This document shows, piece after piece, positions 46,234-58,992 of a stretch of DNA of 64,000 nt. Source of the DNA: Ensifer sesbaniae. Its GTDB lineage: Bacteria; Pseudomonadota; Alphaproteobacteria; Rhizobiales; Rhizobiaceae. Both the position numbers and the translations under genes were made by a program. Under the pieces are notes generated by a model. That model worked only from the letters and a program-made list of their open reading frames with translations. It had not been told where the DNA came from and searched no databases. The stretch is from positions 558,001-622,000 of the forward strand of contig NZ_JABEKU010000001.1 of the NCBI RefSeq assembly GCF_013283665.1, read 5' to 3'. Positions within the stretch are counted from its first letter, which is position 1; each line of letters begins with the position of its first letter.

Positions 46234-46830
46234 TCAGCCCGGAATGAGGCCGAAGACGCCCAGCAATAGTCGGCCGATCATCAGCGAAGGCAATAGGAAG
46301 AGCGCCGTCAGCGCCGAGGCCAGCAAGGTCTGATTGCCCGTCACCATGCGCAGTAGCCGGAAGAGGACACCGACGTTGACGACGAGCAACATGAGTTCGA
46401 TCAGGCCCGTCAGCCCCTCGCTTCCCGGAATGACCAGGCGCAGTGCCGCCGGAACCGCCATCGCATAGGATAAGGGCACATACAGCCAGTTTGTTGTGAC
46501 GATGACCGGCACCACTGCTGGGGCAAAGCCCAGCGGGCGGGAGAGCACGGCGATCAGCACCAGCGGCAGAAGCCAACCGGTGAGATCGACCAGCACCAGC
46601 TTGAAGATAGCGTCTATGCCGACGGTCGTGCCGGTCGGCATGGCGGAGAGATAATAGAGCCGCCAGGACGCCCAGGTGACGGCGATCGCCGGCAGGCACC
46701 AGAGCATCGTCGTGAACGATCGCCACAGGCCGCTCTCGCTGAAGTCGAACCAGCGGAATCCCTCCTCGTTGCCCTGCGCCAAGAGCCAGATGCCCTTGAT
46801 ATAGGCAAGCACCTCGTCAAGCAGCGGCAT
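46234..46830 (-). CDS. Hypothetical multi-pass inner-membrane protein
   Basis: 198 residues with about five hydrophobic helices (near 40-60, 75-100, 105-128, 135-160 and 170-195) and no recognised motif. It starts within the last codons of dapE on the same strand (overlap of 14 bases), so the two are translationally coupled. Conserved association with dapE is likely in rhizobia, but a role in lysine or peptidoglycan metabolism is only a guess from position. Confidence 0.75.
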
Positions 46831-48010
46831 GATCGAACCAGCTGGAGATGAAGGTCTCGTAGATATTGGTCAGGGTTTCAAGGTCGGCGACGGCGACGCG
46901 CTCGTCGACCATGTGCATGGTCTGGCCGACCAGGCCGAATTCGACCACCGGGCAATAGTCCTTGATGAAGCGCGCATCCGAGGTGCCGCCTGTCGTCGAC
47001 AGCTTCGGCTGCCGGCCGGTGACCGCCTCGACCGCACCGGAAAGCGAATCGATCAATGCGTTGTTGCGCGTCAGGAACACGTGGCTCGGCCGCTCGGCCC
47101 AGGTGATCTCGTAGCGGACGGGCGCACGATCCGGCCGCAGGCTGCCGGCAGCGGCAGCGCGATCGAGCCGCGCAATGATCTCCGCCATCAGGCTTTCCGC
47201 GGTCCAGGTGTCGTTGAAACGGATGTTGAAGGCGGCAGTGGCCTTGGCCGGAATGACGTTGACCGCGCCGTTGCCGACGTCGATCGTCGTCACTTCCAGG
47301 TTCGATGCCTGAAAACTCTCGGTGCCGTTGTCGAAAGGCGGATCCATCAGCGCCTGCGTCAATTGCAGGATGCCGCGCACCGGATTGTCGGCGAGATGCG
47401 GATAGGCGGCATGTCCTTGCACGCCGTTGACGGTGATGCGGCCGGAGAGCGAGCCGCGCCGGCCGATCTTGATCATGTCGCCGAGGCTCTCCGGGTTGGT
47501 CGGTTCGCCGACGAGGCAGGCGTCCCAGCGCTCGCCCTTGTCAGCCGCCCATTGCAACAGTTTGGTGGTGCCGTTGATCGCCGGGCCTTCTTCGTCGCCG
47601 GTGATCAGGAAAGATACCGAGCCCTTCGGCGCGCCATGTTTCTCAATGTGGCGGGCGATCGCCGCGACGAAGCAGGCGATGCCGCCCTTCATGTCGACGG
47701 CGCCGCGGCCGTACATTTCGCCGCCGGCGATCTCGGCCGCGAATGGTCCGTGGCTCCAGGCGGCTTCGTCGCCGACGGGAACCACATCCGTATGACCGGC
47801 GAACATCAGATGCGGGCCTTCGGTGCCGAGCCGCGCATAGAGGTTCTCGATGTCGGGCGTGCCGACGTCCTTGGCCACCACGCGGTCGACCGAAAAGCCG
47901 AGCGGCTTCAGCATGGCTTCGAGGGCGGCAAGCGCTCCGCCTTCGGCCGGGGTGACCGAGGGGCAGCGAATGAGGGTGGCGAGATTGGCGATCGGATCGG
48001 TGGGGGTCAT
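46817..48010 (-). CDS. dapE: Succinyl-diaminopimelate desuccinylase
   Basis: Zn-dependent M20-family hydrolase that makes LL-diaminopimelate for lysine and cell wall. First metal motif '[15 protein letters not shown]', second '[17 protein letters not shown]', catalytic Glu in '[14 protein letters not shown]', and late ligand His in '[12 protein letters not shown]'. Length 397 is slightly above E. coli DapE (375). The partner enzyme DapD lies about 10 kb further on the same strand. Confidence 0.96.
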
Positions 48011-48211: not shown

Positions 48212-51200
48212 CTACTCGCCGGGCGCGAGATGCGGCGCTTCGATATGGGCTCCGGCGTGCTTCAACGGCCGCTCGCCGGTGAGCTTGCGGATCAGCACGT
48301 AGAAGACCGGGGTCATGAAGATGCCGAAGGCGGTGACGCCGATCATGCCGGCAAAGACCGCGACACCCATGGCCGAGCGCATTTCCGCACCGGCGCCGGT
48401 GGACGTCACCAGCGGCACCACACCCATGATGAAGGCCATCGAGGTCATCAGGATCGGGCGGAGACGCAGCCGGCTTGCCTCGATCGCAGCCTTGACCGGC
48501 GTGCTGCCCGACAGTTCCAGTTCGCGGGCGAACTCGACGATCAGGATGGCGTTCTTCGCCGACAGGCCGACCAGCACGATCAGACCGATCTGGGTGAAGA
48601 CGTTGTTGTCGCCTCCCGTCAGCCAGACGCCTATGAGAGCCGCCATGATGCCCATCGGCACGATCAGGATGATCGAGATCGGCAGCGTCAGGCTTTCATA
48701 CTGGGCAGCGAGCACGAGATAGACGAGCAGCAGCGCCAGCGGGAAGACCAGGATGCCGGAGTTGCCCGCGAGAATCTGCTGGTAGGTGAGATCCGTCCAC
48801 TCGTAGCCGATGCCCGGCGGCAGCGTTTCGGCGGCGATCTTTTCGATGGCGGCCTGGGCCTGGCCGGAGGAGAAGCCCGGTGCCGGGCCGCCGTTGATGT
48901 CGGCGGAGAGGAAGCCGTTGTAGCGGATCGCCCGCTCGGCGCCGACCGTCTGCTCGACCTTCAAGAGCGCCGACAGCGGGATCATCTCGCCGGACTGCGA
49001 GCGGACCTTCAGCTTGCCGATGTCGTCGGCATGGCTGCGGTAGTTGGCGTCCGCCTGGATGCGCACGCTGTAGGTACGGCCGAAGGCGTTGAAGTCGTTG
49101 ACGTAGAGCGAGCCCAGGTAGATCTGCAGCGTCTCGAAGACGTCGGTGACGGCCACGCCGAGTTGGCGCGCCTTGACGCGGTCGAGGTCGGCATAGAGCT
49201 GCGGCACGTTGATCTGGTAGCTCGAATAGAGCCCGGCCAGTTCCGGCGTCTGGTAGGCCTTGGCGAGGAAAGCCTTGGCTGCCTCGTCGAGTGCCTGATA
49301 GCCGAGGCCATTCTTGTCCTCGATCTGCAGCTTGAAGCCGCCGGTCGTGCCAAGACCCTGGACGGGCGGCGGCGGGAACATGGCGATGAAGGCATCCTGG
49401 ATCGCGCCGAATTCCTGGTTGAGCTGCATGGCGATCGCGCCACCTGACAGTTCGGGCGTCTTGCGTTCCTCGAAGGGTTTGAGGGCGACGAAGACGATGC
49501 CGGAGTTCGACGAGTTGGTGAAGCCGTTGATCGACAGGCCCGGGAAGGCGATGGCGTTTTCGACGCCCGGGTGCTTCAGCGCGATTTCGCTCATGCGCTT
49601 GATCACGTCTTCCGAGCGGTCGAGTGTGGCTGCATCCGGAAGCTGGGCGAAGCCGATCAGGTACTGCTTGTCCTGAGCCGGCACGAAGCCGCCGGGGATG
49701 GCGCGGAACAGCGTGAAGGTGACGCCGAGGAGCACGACATAGACGACCATGATCAGCGACTTGCGCGTTAGGATCCGGCCGACGCCGCGGCCATAGGCTT
49801 CCGAGCTTGCTCCGAAGAAGCGGTTGAACCCGCGGAAGAACCAGCCGAAGAGCTTGTCCATCGCCCGGGTCAGCCAATCCTTCGGCGCATGATGGTCCTT
49901 GAGCAGAAGGGCGGCCAGCGCCGGAGAGAGCGTCAGCGAGTTAAGCGCCGAGATGACGGTCGAGATCGCGATCGTCAGCGCGAACTGGCGGTAGAACTGG
50001 CCGGTGAGGCCGGTGATGAAGGCAAGCGGCACGAAGACGGCGACGAGCACCAGCGCGATGGCGATGATCGGACCGGAGACTTCCTGCATGGCGCGATAGG
50101 TCGCCTGGACCGGCGACAGCCCCTGTTCGATATTGCGTTCGACGTTTTCCACCACCACGATCGCGTCATCGACGACGATGCCGATCGCCAGCACCAGACC
50201 GAAGAGGCTGAGCGCGTTGATCGAGAAGCCGAAGACATACATCACCGCGAAGGTGCCGACGATCGAGACCGGCACGGCGACGAGCGGAATGATCGAGGCG
50301 CGCCAGGTCTGCAGGAAGACGATGACGACGATGACGACGAGGGCGATCGCCTCGAGCAGGGTATGGATGACCGACTCGATCGAGGCGCGCACGAACTGGG
50401 TGGTGTCGTAGACGATCTCGTAGTCGACGCCCTCGGGCATGGTGAGCTTCAGCTCGGCCATGGCCTTGTGCACGTTTTCCGAGATCTGGATCGCGTTCGA
50501 GCCCGGCGCCTGGAAAATGCCCATGCCGACGGCCGGCTTGTTGTCGAGCAGCGAGCGCAGCGAATAATCGGCCGCACCCATCTCGACACGCGCGACGTCG
50601 CCGAGGCGGGTGACTTCGCCATTGGCGCCGGACTTGACGACGATGTTGGCGAAATCCTCAGGCGTCTGCAGGCGGCCTTGCGCGTTGACGGAAAGCTGCA
50701 GGTCGAGGCCGGGGACGGACGGCGAGGCACCGATGACGCCAGCGGCCGCCTGGACGTTCTGGCCGCGGACGGCAAGGGCGATGTCGCTTGCCGCCAGGCC
50801 GCGTTCGGCGGCCTTCTGCGGGTCGATCCAGACGCGCATCGAATAGTCGCCGCCGCCGAAGATCTGGACCTGGCCGACGCCTTCGATGCGGGCCAGCCGA
50901 TCCTTGACGTTCAACACACCGTAGTTGCGCAGATAGTTGATGTCATATTGTCCGTTCGGCGAGATCAGGTGCACCACCAGCGTCAGGTCGGGCGAGCTCT
51001 TGACGGTGGTGACGCCGAGGCGGCGCACCTCCTCGGGCAGTCGCGGTTCGGCCTGCGAGACGCGGTTCTGCACGAGCTGCTGGGCCTGGTCCGGATCGGT
51101 GCCGAGCTCGAAGGTGACGGTCAGCGTCATCAGGCCGTCGGCGGTCGCCTGGCTCTGCATGTAGAGCATGCCTTCGACGCCGTTGATCTGTTCTTCGAGC

Positions 51201-51397
51201 GGTGTCGCCACCGTTTCGGCGATGACCGCCGGGTTGGCGCCCGGATATTGTGCACGCACGACGATCTGCGGCGGCACGACTTCGGGATATTCCGAGATCG
51301 GCAGACCGGTCATGCCGATCAGGCCGGCCACGAAGATCAGGACCGAAAGAACGCCCGCGAAGACCGGGCGGTCGACGAAGAAGCGTGAGAAATTCAT
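48212..51397 (-). CDS. RND-family multidrug efflux inner-membrane transporter (AcrB/HAE1 type)
   Basis: Proton-driven trimeric drug exporter of 1061 residues. It starts 'MNFSRFFVDRPVFAGVLSVL', the usual cytoplasmic helix and TM1. The proton-relay aspartates are Asp410 and Asp411 in 'LAIGIVVDDAIVVVENVERN' (TM4), equivalent to E. coli AcrB D407/D408. Two large periplasmic loops and a second set of six helices end 'GIFMTPVFYVLIRKLTGE'. It lies 129 bases downstream of its adaptor gene. No outer-membrane TolC-like gene is in the window. The drug spectrum cannot be predicted. Confidence 0.95.
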   Translation of the reverse strand: MNFSRFFVDRPVFAGVLSVLIFVAGLIGMTGLPISEYPEVVPPQIVVRAQYPGANPAVIAETVATPLEEQINGVEGMLYMQSQATADGLMTLTVTFELGTDPDQAQQLVQNRVSQAEPRLPEEVRRLGVTTVKSSPDLTLVVHLISPNGQYDINYLRNYGVLNVKDRLARIEGVGQVQIFGGGDYSMRVWIDPQKAAERGLAASDIALAVRGQNVQAAAGVIGASPSVPGLDLQLSVNAQGRLQTPEDFANIVVKSGANGEVTRLGDVARVEMGAADYSLRSLLDNKPAVGMGIFQAPGSNAIQISENVHKAMAELKLTMPEGVDYEIVYDTTQFVRASIESVIHTLLEAIALVVIVVIVFLQTWRASIIPLVAVPVSIVGTFAVMYVFGFSINALSLFGLVLAIGIVVDDAIVVVENVERNIEQGLSPVQATYRAMQEVSGPIIAIALVLVAVFVPLAFITGLTGQFYRQFALTIAISTVISALNSLTLSPALAALLLKDHHAPKDWLTRAMDKLFGWFFRGFNRFFGASSEAYGRGVGRILTRKSLIMVVYVVLLGVTFTLFRAIPGGFVPAQDKQYLIGFAQLPDAATLDRSEDVIKRMSEIALKHPGVENAIAFPGLSINGFTNSSNSGIVFVALKPFEERKTPELSGGAIAMQLNQEFGAIQDAFIAMFPPPPVQGLGTTGGFKLQIEDKNGLGYQALDEAAKAFLAKAYQTPELAGLYSSYQINVPQLYADLDRVKARQLGVAVTDVFETLQIYLGSLYVNDFNAFGRTYSVRIQADANYRSHADDIGKLKVRSQSGEMIPLSALLKVEQTVGAERAIRYNGFLSADINGGPAPGFSSGQAQAAIEKIAAETLPPGIGYEWTDLTYQQILAGNSGILVFPLALLLVYLVLAAQYESLTLPISIILIVPMGIMAALIGVWLTGGDNNVFTQIGLIVLVGLSAKNAILIVEFARELELSGSTPVKAAIEASRLRLRPILMTSMAFIMGVVPLVTSTGAGAEMRSAMGVAVFAGMIGVTAFGIFMTPVFYVLIRKLTGERPLKHAGAHIEAPHLAPGE

Positions 51398-52810: not shown

Positions 52811-53635
52811 CTAACGCACCGTCATTTCCGCCGGCTTTGCCCCTGCCTTCTGGAAGAAGCGGGAGAAGATGCCGGTAATTTCCTTCTGCTGCGCCGACCA
52901 GCCTTCGCCGGAAGCCGCATTCTGCGGCAGCCATCCGGCTCGTCCGGGCAGGACATGGGACTCAACCATCACGCCGGCCTTGCGCAGACGCTCGGCATAG
53001 GCTTCAGCCTCGTCGCGCATCGGACACTCTTCGCTGGTCACGATCAGCGAAGGCACGAGGCCGGCAAGCCGCGTGCAGTGGGCCGGCGCGGCGTAGGGAT
53101 GGGTGAAGCCACCGCTTTGCCCGAGGTAACGCTGCCAGCCATCGGCGATCGATTGCGCCGAGGACTGCGGACAGTATTGCCGGAACGATTCCGTCGCCAG
53201 GCAAGGGTCGAGCATCGGCGACAGCAGGATCTGGCCCTTGAGATCGGTCAGATACTGGTCACGCGCCATCAAAGCGGCGCCGGCGGCAACATTGCCGCCT
53301 GCCTCTTCGCCGGCCACGAACAGCGACGACTTCTTGTGCGCGAACTGCGGGCAGCGCGAGCGCATCGACGACAGCATGGCGTAGGCGACATCGAGCGCCG
53401 CGGGAAATGGATTGAGGCAGGCCGCGGAATATTCCGGAGAGATCACCACCGCTCCAGCCGCCGCAAGCGCCTCGGCGACGCGCTCGCCGGCGGCGATCGT
53501 TCCGCCGACGAAGGAGCCGCCGTGCAGGTGCAACACGACCGGCGGCGGATTGAGCAAAGCTTCGCCGCGGTAGACGCGTGCCGTGCAGCAGCCTTGGCCG
53601 GTCTGCATCGTCTCCACTTTGAACAGTTCGCCCAT
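52811..53635 (-). CDS. Alpha/beta-hydrolase-fold protein of the HSL type lacking the catalytic triad
   Basis: Clearly related to hormone-sensitive-lipase-type esterases: oxyanion-hole motif 'VVLHLHGGSFVGG' (HGG at 38-40), 'VVISPEYSAACLNPFPAALD' and 'MRDEAEAYAERLRKAGV'. But the nucleophile elbow G-D-S-A-G-G is G-E-E-A-G-G (109-114), so Ser is Glu111. The acid position (xxDPLRDE) is Cys204, and the His-Gly-Phe position reads R-A-G-W, with Gly234 aligned to His. All three residues were checked against the DNA. The ATG at 53635 (AGAGAG upstream) is used; in-frame starts at 53668 and 53686 exist. First gene before the RND pair, divergent from a LysR gene. Confidence 0.8.
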   Translation of the reverse strand: MGELFKVETMQTGQGCCTARVYRGEALLNPPPVVLHLHGGSFVGGTIAAGERVAEALAAAGAVVISPEYSAACLNPFPAALDVAYAMLSSMRSRCPQFAHKKSSLFVAGEEAGGNVAAGAALMARDQYLTDLKGQILLSPMLDPCLATESFRQYCPQSSAQSIADGWQRYLGQSGGFTHPYAAPAHCTRLAGLVPSLIVTSEECPMRDEAEAYAERLRKAGVMVESHVLPGRAGWLPQNAASGEGWSAQQKEITGIFSRFFQKAGAKPAEMTVR

Positions 53636-53715
53636 CTCTCTTGCCTTCGGCCAGAGGTCAACCCACATGTGGCGGCGACACGCCACGGTAGGAGAATAGC
53701 ATTGTCTTCTGTCTG

Positions 53716-53746
53716 GAATAGTATTTTCAAACTGACTACACTATTC
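53716..53746. promoter_or_regulatory. Inverted repeat in the LysR/hydrolase divergent promoter region
   Basis: GAATAGT (53716-53722) and ACTATTC (53740-53746) are exact inverted repeats 17 bases apart. They sit about 30 bases upstream of the LysR ATG in the AT-rich divergent promoter region, where a LysR-type regulator would bind. Confidence 0.55.
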
Positions 53747-53775: not shown

Positions 53776-54687
53776 ATGGACCAGCTCACGGCCATGCGCG
53801 CGTTCCTCCGGGTCGTCGAAACCGGAAATTTCACCCGCGCCTCCGCTTCGCTGAATATGCCCAAGGCGACGCTGACCAATCTCATTCAGGGATTGGAGGC
53901 GCATTTGCGCACAAAACTTTTGAACCGCACCACCCGCCGCGTGCTGGTGACGCCCGATGGTGCGCTCTATTACGAACGCGCCGCACGCCTTTTGACCGAT
54001 CTCGACGAACTCGACGGCAGCCTTTCCAGCGCCCAGACCTTGCCGAAGGGGCGTTTGCGGGTGGAAATGGCCAGTGCGATTGCCAATCTGATCGTCATTC
54101 CGGCCTTGCCCGAGTTCCATAAGCGCTATCCGGATATCCAGATCGATCTCGGTGTTTCCGACAGAACCGTCGACTATGTCGCGGAGAACGTCGATTGCGC
54201 CATCCGTGTCGGCACGCTCACCGACCAGTCGCTGATCGCCCGCCGCATTACCGAGATGAGCTTCGTTGCCTGCGCCGCACCGGACTATCTCCAGCGTCAC
54301 GCAATGCCGCAGCACCCGTCCGATCTGTCGAAGAACTGCTACGTCGTCGGTTACTTCCGGCCGCAGACCGGACAGCAGATGCCGTTCTATTTCAAGCGCG
54401 GCAATGAGGAGATCGAGGTGAACGGCCGCTACGCTGTGGCGGCCAATGAAGTGACGACCTATCTCGCCGCTGCTCGCGCCGGCCTGGGCGTCATCCAGGC
54501 GCCTCGTTTCATGGTGCGCGACGATCTGGTGTCCGGCGCCATGCGGCCGGTCCTCGAGGACTGGGAGGTCGAACCCATGCCGATCTATCTGGTCTATCCG
54601 CCGAACCGGCACCTCAGCAGCCGCCTGCGCGTCTTTGCCGATTGGGTGGTCAAGGTCGTTGCCCAGTCGCAGCTCGATGCCGCCTGA
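53776..54687 (+). CDS. LysR-family transcriptional regulator
   Basis: 303-residue LTTR. Winged HTH: '[20 protein letters not shown]' then '[29 protein letters not shown]'-type recognition helix (quoted in part as [12 protein letters not shown]). The C-terminal two-lobe effector domain (about 90-295) is of the CrgA/DsdC-like group that often regulates a neighbouring divergent gene. The ATG at 53776 is preferred to the TTG two codons earlier. Divergent from the pseudo-hydrolase and RND genes, which are its most likely targets. Confidence 0.9.
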
Positions 54688-54690
54688 TCC

Positions 54691-55086
54691 TCACCGGTTC
54701 CGATCGGCGTCGTAGCGCTCGCGTGCCGCATCCAGTGCGCCGAAATGAGTCTCCGCCCAGCGGTCGAGTACCAGCAGCGTTTCGCTGAGCGAACGGCCGA
54801 GCGGGCTCAGGCTGTATTCCACATGCGGCGGCACCGTCTTCTTGTCTTCGCGGATGACCAGGCCGTTGCGCTCCAGCTCCTTCAGCGTCTGCGTCAGCAT
54901 CTTCTGCGAAATGTCGCCGAGCCTGCGCATCAGCGCGGCATTGCGCATCGGCCCGCCTTCGAGGGCCGAGAGGATCAGCATCGGCCACTTGCCGGCGATC
55001 AGTTCCAGCGCATGGCGTGACGAACAGGTCGGATCGAAGACGTCGGGGACGGACGTGGCGGATGTCCGCGTGTCGGGATTATTCAT
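54691..55086 (-). CDS. HxlR-family winged-helix regulator
   Basis: 131-residue DUF24/HxlR-type regulator. Family features: Cys near the N-terminus in 'DPTCSSRHALELIAGKWPML', then 'GPMRNAALMRRLGDISQKML' and the wing 'VPPHVEYSLSPLGRSL'. The usual conserved Cys of redox-sensing members may be the single Cys here. The ATG at 55086 (MNNPDTRTSA...) is preferred to 55113. It is divergent from the SMR exporter gene, with an inverted repeat in the shared promoter. Confidence 0.9.
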   Translation of the reverse strand: MNNPDTRTSATSVPDVFDPTCSSRHALELIAGKWPMLILSALEGGPMRNAALMRRLGDISQKMLTQTLKELERNGLVIREDKKTVPPHVEYSLSPLGRSLSETLLVLDRWAETHFGALDAARERYDADRNR

Positions 55087-55089
55087 GGT

Positions 55090-55119
55090 TACCAAAAGGT
55101 GCGTAATTGTCATTTGGTA
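55090..55119. promoter_or_regulatory. Inverted repeat TACCAAA-N16-TTTGGTA in HxlR/SMR promoter
   Basis: TACCAAA (55090-55096) and TTTGGTA (55113-55119) are exact inverted repeats. The site immediately precedes the HxlR start and is about 50 bases before the SMR start, consistent with an HxlR operator controlling both. Confidence 0.6.
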
Positions 55120-55169: not shown

Positions 55170-55487
55170 ATGGCATGGATCCTTCTGATAGCGGCGAGCC
55201 TCATCGAGATCGTCATGGGGCTGGCGCTGAAATATGCTGACGGCTGGACGAAGCTGGTGCCGAGCGCAGTCGGCATCGCCGCTGCTCTCGGCAGCGTCTA
55301 TCTTCTGACGATTGCGATGCGTGACCTGCCGGCGGGCACGGCCTATGCCGCCTGGACCGGCATCGGCTCGGTCGGCATCACGGTGCTCGGCATCGTGCTC
55401 TTCGGGGATCCGGTCTCCTGGCTGCGCGTCACCTGTATCGCGATGATCATCGTCGCCGTCGCCGGCCTGCGCTTTCTGGAGGCCTGA
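55170..55487 (+). CDS. Small multidrug resistance exporter, SugE/Gdx-like
   Basis: 105 residues with four helices. The essential membrane glutamate is Glu13 in 'ASLIEIVMGLALKYADGW'. The segment 'AGTAYAAWTGIGSVGITVLG' resembles the Gdx (guanidinium exporter, formerly SugE) subtype rather than EmrE. A single gene, not a paired SMR, implying a dual-topology homodimer. No guanidine riboswitch is seen upstream; control is probably by the divergent HxlR protein, which leaves the physiological substrate open. Confidence 0.85.
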   Translation: MAWILLIAASLIEIVMGLALKYADGWTKLVPSAVGIAAALGSVYLLTIAMRDLPAGTAYAAWTGIGSVGITVLGIVLFGDPVSWLRVTCIAMIIVAVAGLRFLEA

Positions 55488-58134: not shown

Positions 58135-58992
58135 TCAGTCTCGAAGCAGTTCGTTGATGCCGGTCTTCGAGCGCGTCTTCTCGTCGACGCGCTTGACGAT
58201 GACAGCGCAATAGAGGTTGGGCGCCGGCTGGCCGTTGGCCATGGTCGAGCCCGACGGCATCGAACCGGCGACGACGACGGAGTAGGGTGGAACCTCGCCG
58301 TAGGTCACTTCGCCGGTGGCGCGGTCGACGATCTTGGTCGATTTGCCGATGAAGACACCCATGCCGAGAACGGAGCCCTCACGCACGATGCAGCCTTCGA
58401 CGACCTCCGAGCGGGCGCCGATGAAGCAATTGTCCTCGATGATCGTCGGGCCGGCCTGCATCGGCTCCAGAACGCCGCCAATGCCGACGCCGCCCGAAAG
58501 GTGCACGTTCTTGCCGATCTGGGCGCAGGAGCCGACAGTCGCCCAGGTATCGACCATCGTGCCTTCACCGACATAGGCGCCGAGATTGACGAAGGAAGGC
58601 ATCAGGATCGCATTGGGGGCGATATAGGCCGAGCGGCGTACGACGCAATTCGGAACGGCGCGGAAGCCGGCCTTCTCGAACTCGTTGACGCTCCAGCCGT
58701 CGAACTTCGACGGTACCTTATCCCACCAGACGGACTGGCCCGGGCCACCCTTGACGATCTCCATCGGGTTGAGGCGGAAGGACAGGAGCACTGCTTTTTT
58801 CAGCCATTGATTTACCGTCCACACGCCATCCTCGCCGCGCTGTGCGACACGGGCCTTGCCGCTGTCGAGCAGGTTGAGCGCCGTCTCGACGGCATCGCGC
58901 ACCGGGCCGCGCGTAGCGGTGTTCACGGAATCGCGGTCTTCAAAGGCGGTCTCGATCGTCTGCGACAGGGAGGCGAGGTCGTGGTTGGTCAT
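58135..58992 (-). CDS. dapD: Tetrahydrodipicolinate N-succinyltransferase
   Basis: Committed step of the succinylase branch of lysine/diaminopimelate synthesis. The left-handed parallel beta-helix of hexapeptide repeats is evident from about residue 120 ('[20 protein letters not shown]', '[21 protein letters not shown]', the latter quoted in full family form only in part). N-terminal helical domain '[19 protein letters not shown]'. Length 285. It feeds DapE (46.8-48.0 kb). Confidence 0.97.

What the first reader, a model, noticed from the sequence alone, without database searches (positions are those of the whole stretch)
52811..53635. Hydrolase-fold protein with all three catalytic residues replaced, next to an RND pump
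The sequence shows an HSL-type alpha/beta hydrolase scaffold (HGG oxyanion motif, FPAAL and RDEAEAYAERL blocks), but Ser of GDSAGG is Glu111, the acid position is Cys204 and the His position is Gly234. Losing the whole triad while keeping the fold and a continuous 275-codon frame suggests selection for binding rather than catalysis, for example ligand sensing or delivery to the pump 81 bases downstream. Known precedent: plant GID1 gibberellin receptors are HSL-type proteins that lost catalysis.
Basis: partly seen in the sequence, partly recalled or inferred. Interest (0 to 1): 0.72.

Follow-up and report, generated by a model that had tools for sequence, protein, structure and literature searches.

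The report
Dead esterase beside a drug pump
A gene that looks like an ordinary ester-splitting enzyme has lost the chemistry that such enzymes need, yet bacteria keep it in front of one kind of multidrug pump, so it probably recognises a compound rather than cutting it.

Summary
Confirmed and widened. The gene (minus strand, 52811-53635) is a hormone-sensitive-lipase (HSL)-type alpha/beta hydrolase with Ser->Glu111, Asp->Cys204, His->Gly234. It is not decaying: dN/dS about 0.12, frame open in 16 of 16 genus genomes. It is the rhizobial form of LlpE, the "lipase-like" protein encoded between a LysR regulator and a MexEF/CeoAB-type RND pump in Burkholderia. Of 265 relatives examined, 163 lie directly before an RND adaptor gene, and none of these has the serine (147 Glu, 15 Asp, 1 Gln). 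Of the other 102, 100 have an intact Ser-Asp-His triad; one stray Glu-type copy and one Gly variant are exceptions. On a tree of 94 without the trait columns the groups part at one branch. Asp-type members, B. cenocepacia LlpE included, keep acid and mostly His, so acid-nucleophile catalysis is not excluded there. No signal peptide is visible, the N-terminal cap is short, and a conserved inverted repeat lies in the divergent promoter. Best reading: a cytoplasmic, catalytically dead ligand-binding accessory of the LysR/pump circuit. Ligand and mechanism are inferred; delivery to the pump is weakly supported.

The parts
52811..53635 (-). LlpE-type pseudo-hydrolase (HSL fold, E111/C204/G234), 274 aa
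51527..52729 (-). RND periplasmic adaptor (MFP, MexE-like), 81 bases downstream
   Evidence: NCBIfam MexE model is the best hit at 356.5 bits, below its cut-off of 714; RND_mfp 289.6 bits, above its cut-off of 94.9
48212..51397 (-). RND permease (OqxB/MexF-like)
   Evidence: ACR_tran E 0; NCBIfam RND_permease_1 1473.8 bits, above its cut-off of 1250; OqxB model 1417.1, below its cut-off of 2200
53776..54687 (+). divergent LysR-type regulator
   Evidence: Pfam HTH_1 and LysR_substrate; same place in 70 of 70 loci
53716..53746 (.). perfect inverted repeat GAATAGT-N17-ACTATTC, candidate operator in the divergent promoter
   Evidence: one match in the window, 0 of 100 shuffles with a match; present with spacer 14-20 in 30 of 30 loci L040-L069

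Best explanation
The protein is the rhizobial, Glu-type member of the LlpE family: an HSL-fold protein that sits next to a LysR-controlled MexEF/CeoAB-type RND pump, whose catalytic serine became an acid and which, in the Glu type, also lacks the catalytic His (and in Ensifer the acid). SHOWN by sequence: loss of the triad, purifying selection, near-exclusive association with the pump operon, Glu111 conserved, short N-terminus, no visible signal peptide, conserved inverted repeat in the shared promoter. INFERRED: it has no esterase activity; the former active-site pocket, with Glu111 and perhaps the group-specific His179, Tyr181, Arg189 and Trp235, binds a small cytoplasmic compound; this binding tunes the induction of the operon (holding or presenting the LysR co-inducer) rather than transport itself.
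For: Residues. Partition: 0 of 163 pump-linked relatives have Ser; 100 of 102 others have Ser, Asp and His. One branch, 100/96 support, trait columns left out, 94 rows. Glu111 in 64 of 64 rows of A1. His179, Tyr181, Arg189 at 1.00 in the 147 Glu-type and 15 Asp-type members against 0.15, 0.15, 0.00 in 41 Ser types. dN/dS 0.120, against MFP 0.087, RND 0.055, LysR 0.091. Fold intact: pLDDT 87; HSL esterases top the PDB matches. Upper bound of residues before the oxyanion motif under 80 in 120 of 163 pump-linked members and in 0 of 41 Ser types. No hydrophobic N-terminus in 64 of 64. Divergent LysR and operator-like repeat. In print (passages): BpeT binds the bpeT-llpE intergenic region; llpE is cotranscribed with bpeEF-oprC; deletion does not affect export of known antibiotics.
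Against: No ligand, binding or regulation was tested. Asp-type members keep acid (15 of 15) and His (14 of 15), which suggests chemistry rather than binding in that branch. One Glu-type copy, L298, has no adaptor, permease or LysR match within 3.5 kb, so the tie to the pump is not absolute. PMC1557404 calls LlpE periplasmic (passage). The window gene has the highest dN/dS of the four genes. PCR in two Burkholderia sequence types found no llpE (PMC5461758, passage), so the gene may be dispensable.
Confidence: 0.45

Rival explanations
1. The LlpE proteins are enzymes with an acid nucleophile: Asp (Asp-His-Asp, as in haloalkane dehalogenases and epoxide hydrolases, recalled) in the Burkholderia/Azospirillum branch, and a reduced or altered activity in the Glu type. 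They would clear the inducer or a pump substrate, as the MexS oxidoreductase is thought to do beside mexEF (recalled).
For: 15 Asp-type members: acid Asp 15 of 15, His 14 of 15, HGG 15 of 15; B. cenocepacia LlpE (L198) shows GHDAGGQ, NDVLH, DITHAAL. LlpE is described in print as probably an enzyme (PMC4396416, passage).
Against: The window protein has neither His nor acid partner; 145 of 147 Glu-type members lack His at that column. I know of no alpha/beta hydrolase with a Glu nucleophile (recalled).
Confidence: 0.2
2. It is a structural or assembly partner of the adaptor or permease, with no small ligand.
For: The gene lies directly before the adaptor in 163 of the 164 relatives that carry Glu, Asp or Gln at position 111; cotranscription in Burkholderia.
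Against: No visible signal peptide; efflux reported unaffected by llpE deletion in Burkholderia. Interfaces were not modelled here.
Confidence: 0.15
3. It is a decaying former esterase carried along in the operon.
For: All three catalytic residues are replaced in the window protein; the oxyanion HGG is not kept in 42 of 147 Glu-type relatives.
Against: dN/dS 0.120; open frame in 16 of 16 genus genomes; Glu111, His179, Tyr181, Arg189, Phe260 conserved.
Confidence: 0.03

Closest known systems
LlpE of Burkholderia (llpE-ceoA-ceoB-opcM; llpE-bpeE-bpeF-oprC)
   Same: HSL-type fold, LysR beside it, gene directly before MFP and RND (L198; PMC5587915 passage), no catalytic Ser, His179/Tyr181/Arg189 signature; on the same side of one branch
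   Different: Burkholderia LlpE has Asp at the nucleophile position and keeps Asp and His; its operon ends in an outer-membrane channel gene, whereas here dapE follows
Bacterial HSL (family IV) esterases such as EstE1, EST2, EstS1, and chloramphenicol hydrolase EstDL136
   Same: Fold (query TM-score 0.74-0.84) and 23-31% identity in the 50 rows listed
   Different: They are active esterases with a Ser-Asp-His triad and a longer N-terminal cap (recalled); the window protein has no residue of the triad and a short N-terminus
Plant gibberellin receptor GID1
   Same: HSL-derived; sequence match E about 4e-16; a receptor, not an enzyme (recalled)
   Different: GID1 keeps Ser and Asp, lost only His, and uses a long N-terminal lid (recalled); here all three residues are changed and the lid region is short
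mexT-mexS-mexEF-oprN of Pseudomonas
   Same: LysR, an accessory gene and a MexEF-type pump side by side (mexT: PMC5587915 passage; mexS recalled)
   Different: MexS is an oxidoreductase, unrelated in fold (recalled)

Membership tests
HSL / Abhydrolase_3 esterase (as an active serine hydrolase) | Pfam PF07859 and alpha/beta hydrolase fold | tested here: met
   E 5.6e-49; pLDDT 87, HSL esterases as top PDB matches
HSL / Abhydrolase_3 esterase (as an active serine hydrolase) | HGG oxyanion motif | tested here: met
   HLHGG at residues 36-40; 105 of 147 in the Glu type
HSL / Abhydrolase_3 esterase (as an active serine hydrolase) | Ser in GxSxG | tested here: not met
   Glu111; 0 of 163 pump-linked members have Ser
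HSL / Abhydrolase_3 esterase (as an active serine hydrolase) | acid (Asp) and His of the triad | tested here: not met
   Cys204 and Gly234 in the window protein
HSL / Abhydrolase_3 esterase (as an active serine hydrolase) | N-terminal cap | tested here: not met
   Query residue 10 aligns with residue 60 of EstS1; at most 72 residues can precede the HGG in the window frame (309-aa open frame); 0 of 41 Ser types are under 80
LlpE family | LysR, then hydrolase, MFP, RND | tested here: met
LlpE family | common descent with Burkholderia LlpE to the exclusion of Ser-type HSLs | tested here: met
   one branch, 100/96, trait columns left out, 94 rows; B. cenocepacia LlpE is represented by its 95%-identical relative L247. 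Root not inferred: one clade only if the root is on the Ser side
LlpE family | outer-membrane channel gene in the operon | tested here: not met
   dapE follows the permease
LlpE family | cotranscription with the pump genes | not testable with these tools
   gap of 81 bases, same strand; no RNA data
GID1-type receptor | ligand binding in the former active site | not testable with these tools
   no ligand or binding data
GID1-type receptor | Ser and Asp kept, His lost (recalled) | tested here: not met
   all three changed in the window protein

The most novel reading that the evidence does not exclude
The whole LlpE group is a bacterial counterpart of the plant hydrolase-derived receptors: an esterase fold whose nucleophile was replaced, as a group, by a carboxylate and that now reads a plant or self-made small molecule for a LysR regulator driving an RND pump. 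The Asp-His-Asp branch would be either a true acid-nucleophile HSL enzyme, a chemistry I do not know in this family (recalled, not searched exhaustively), or a stage at which catalysis is being given up.
Probability: 0.25. Interest if true: 0.8.

Novelty: new variant of a known kind. Interest (0 to 1): 0.6.

Why it matters
LlpE has stood as an unexplained "lipase" in front of a clinically important pump; a 2015 review says its role warrants further study (PMC4396416, passage). If the family is non-serine throughout, assays for lipase activity look for the wrong thing, and the question becomes what it binds and whether it sets pump induction. It also offers a natural series (Ser-Asp-His; Asp with Asp and His; Glu with Asp, no His; Glu with neither) for studying how an enzyme becomes a binding protein. 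A Root70 gene named llpE is among the genes most induced on plant roots (log2FC 15.2, PMC10719396, table passage), which points to plant compounds as possible inducers.

Tried and rejected
Pseudogene or decay: rejected. Intact triad at shifted positions: rejected. "Cys204 is a conserved new residue": no, 46 of 147. "His lost without exception": no, 2 of 147 Glu-type members (L167, L171) have His in that column and a third (L249) has His nearby. I had first examined 204 relatives; 61 weaker matches (18 listed, 43) had no DNA held. Fetched and read, they gave 58 Ser-Asp-His, a Glu-type copy (L298) and a Gly variant with Asp and His kept (L327) without the pump, and one row (L314) that the script misaligned and that by eye is Ser-Asp-His. 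None of the 61 has an adaptor or permease match in the stretch held; 7 have some LysR-like match. The genome of L298 has a permease 71% identical to the window's about 270 kb away; whether a second hydrolase stands there was not looked at. L298 and L327 are not on the tree. Delivery to the pump: kept only as a weak rival. His179 as a replacement catalytic base: not favoured, because 14 of 15 Asp-type members have both His179 and the usual His. Order of the Ser->Asp and Ser->Glu changes: not resolved; forks around the Asp group are open. The pdb_via fold comparison was not available. Model coordinates were not at hand, so no pocket was measured.

Papers: searches gave listings only; passages were read in PMC5587915, PMC1557404, PMC10719396, PMC4396416, PMC2891726 and PMC5461758. 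None that I saw says that LlpE lacks the serine, but the primary LlpE papers (Nair 2004, Nair 2005) are not held, so prior notice there cannot be excluded.

Rows and limits: L038 was left out of A1 because my script ran past its stop codon; the same gene in locus L112 shows Glu. drop identical envelopes (263 hits to 204, from loci L001-L263). Pump linkage means an adaptor match directly downstream on the same strand: by BLASTP for 156, by TBLASTN for 6 more, and for L180 in the longer locus L264 with about 1.5 kb between. A permease was also seen in 143 of the 163, the other stretches mostly being short, and a LysR match in 157 of 163. 34 of the first 41 Ser-type loci are under 5 kb. Of the plasmid records matched (630, 280) only four were opened. 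Sampling started from the hydrolase, so a Ser-type HSL beside such a pump elsewhere is not excluded. The signal-peptide statement rests on a hydropathy scan, not on a dedicated predictor.

Full report
What is there. On the minus strand, complement 53635-52811 encodes a 274-residue protein of the HSL-type alpha/beta hydrolase family (Pfam Abhydrolase_3, E 5.6e-49). Where active relatives have GDSAGG it has GEEAGG (Glu111); where they have the acid Asp it has Cys204; where they have the His it has Gly234. It is followed after 81 bases by an RND adaptor (complement 52729-51527, MexE-like) and an RND permease (complement 51397-48212, OqxB/MexF-like), and faces a divergent LysR regulator starting at 53776. 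The permease is followed by dapE; no outer-membrane channel gene lies between.

It is a maintained gene. All 16 genomes searched in the genus carry it, 81-100% identical, frame open. Pairwise dN/dS (Nei-Gojobori, own script) over 11 sequences, 55 of 55 pairs, has a median of 0.120; the neighbours give 0.087 (MFP), 0.055 (RND) and 0.091 (LysR). So it is constrained, though less than its neighbours.

Relatives. At E <= 1e-40, 92 of 394 genomes of the family have a match; the DNA of all 92 places was read. In the 70 loci L030-L039 and L070-L129 position 111 is Glu throughout, the LysR is divergent and the adaptor follows on the same strand; the permease was seen in 63 and the other seven stretches are short. 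In alignment A1 (64 rows) Glu111 is one of 37 invariant columns. Cys204 is confined to Ensifer/Sinorhizobium-type sequences, a neighbouring genus coded g17 and one outlier (46 of 147 Glu-type); the other 101 have Asp. So the changes at the serine and at the acid are separate events.

The partition. 163 lie directly before an RND adaptor: Glu 147, Asp 15, Gln 1, Ser 0. Of the other 102, 100 have Ser, Asp and His (41 of 41; 58; L314 by eye). The two exceptions are L298, a Glu-type copy with the His179/Tyr181/Arg189 signature but no pump gene in the stretch held, and L327, an HSL with Gly for Ser and Asp and His kept. On a tree of 94 representatives built before that check, without the oxyanion, nucleophile, acid and His columns, pump-linked and Ser-type rows are separated by one branch (bootstrap 100, SH-aLRT 96); the quick tree with all columns says the same (SH-aLRT 97). 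The root is not inferred; if Ser-Asp-His is ancestral, as in the family at large (recalled), the pump-linked hydrolases are one clade that left serine chemistry once.

Two types. The Glu type (rhizobia, other Hyphomicrobiales, Comamonas and others) has no His at the catalytic column in 145 of 147 and has Trp directly after it in 140 of 147. The Asp type keeps the acid in 15 of 15 and the His in 14 of 15. It includes genuine LlpE of Burkholderia cenocepacia (L198, followed by ceoA and ceoB, predicted at 98.8% and 99.1% identity) and an Azospirillum argentinense copy (L200, where the LysR gene is in tandem, not divergent). Both types share His179, Tyr181 and Arg189 (1.00), which Ser types mostly lack (0.15, 0.15, 0.00 of 41). 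This is a signature independent of the triad.

Link to the literature. llpE is the first gene of the ceoAB-opcM and bpeEF-oprC operons (PMC1557404 and PMC5587915, passages) and in B. cenocepacia J2315 it is drawn in only the CeoB operon among 16 RND clusters (PMC2891726, figure legend). It is reported as cotranscribed and as not needed for export of known antibiotics, and described as probably an enzyme, putative lipase/carboxyl esterase (PMC4396416, passages). CeoAB-OpcM is inducible by salicylate and chloramphenicol (same passages). Two Burkholderia sequence types were PCR-negative for llpE (PMC5461758, passage). I saw no statement that LlpE lacks the catalytic serine; the primary papers (Nair 2004, 2005) are not held. 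A Root70 gene named llpE is among the genes most induced on roots against matrix (log2FC 15.2; PMC10719396, table passage). NCBI lists an Acidovorax sp. Root70, Comamonadaceae; that it is the same isolate is my inference, and its sequence was not examined. The one named Comamonadaceae member examined, Comamonas endophytica L201, is Glu-type.

How it may work. The predicted fold is intact (pLDDT 87, pTM 0.89) and closest to HSL esterases, EstDL136 with chloramphenicol among them. The N-terminal region that caps the pocket in HSL esterases is short: under 80 residues can precede the HGG in 120 of 163 pump-linked members against 0 of 41 Ser types. No hydrophobic N-terminus is present in 64 of 64 rows (largest 15-residue mean 1.08; adaptor as control 2.08; the Asp-type L198 and L200 frames 1.3 and 1.43), so the protein is probably cytoplasmic; this is against delivery to a pump loaded from the periplasm and against the word periplasmic in PMC1557404. 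The intergenic region holds a perfect inverted repeat, GAATAGT-N17-ACTATTC (53716-53746; no match in 100 shuffles), present with a spacer of 14-20 in 30 of 30 loci L040-L069; BpeT is reported to bind the corresponding region in Burkholderia (PMC5587915, passage). I therefore favour a cytoplasmic ligand-binding accessory that tunes LysR-driven induction of the pump. Ligand, binding site and regulatory effect are inferred, none is shown.

Verdict. It is a new variant of a known kind: a pseudoenzyme branch of the LlpE family, with the added result that none of the pump-linked relatives examined has the catalytic serine.

Noticed in passing
window 53716-53746: Perfect inverted repeat GAATAGT-N17-ACTATTC between LysR and the hydrolase, kept (spacer 14-20) in 30 of 30 loci L040-L069; a further GAATAG lies at 53694-53699.
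   Followed up: partly
window 46817-48010 and 58135-58992: dapE directly follows the permease and dapD lies upstream, both on the minus strand: the pump operon sits inside a dap gene neighbourhood, as in S. meliloti Ak57 pSymB (L199).
   Followed up: partly
window 54691-55113 (-) and 55170-55487 (+): An HxlR-type regulator beside a small multidrug resistance (SMR) gene, a second divergent regulator/efflux pair next to the LysR/RND one.
   Followed up: no
L198:4501-5442, L200:4441-5292: Asp at the nucleophile position with His and Asp kept in B. cenocepacia LlpE and an Azospirillum relative.
   Followed up: partly
L298:3345-4334: A Glu-type LlpE relative without pump genes in the 7.7 kb held; its genome has a permease 71% identical to the window's about 270 kb away.
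   Followed up: partly
L327:3408-4496: An HSL relative away from the pump with Gly in place of the catalytic Ser (GDGAGG) but acid and His kept.
   Followed up: no
L256:3893-4696: The one pump-linked hydrolase with Gln at the nucleophile position (GDQAGG) and Glu at the acid column.
   Followed up: no
L264, between about 3523 and 4992: About 1.5 kb separate hydrolase and adaptor in this genome, room for another gene.
   Followed up: no
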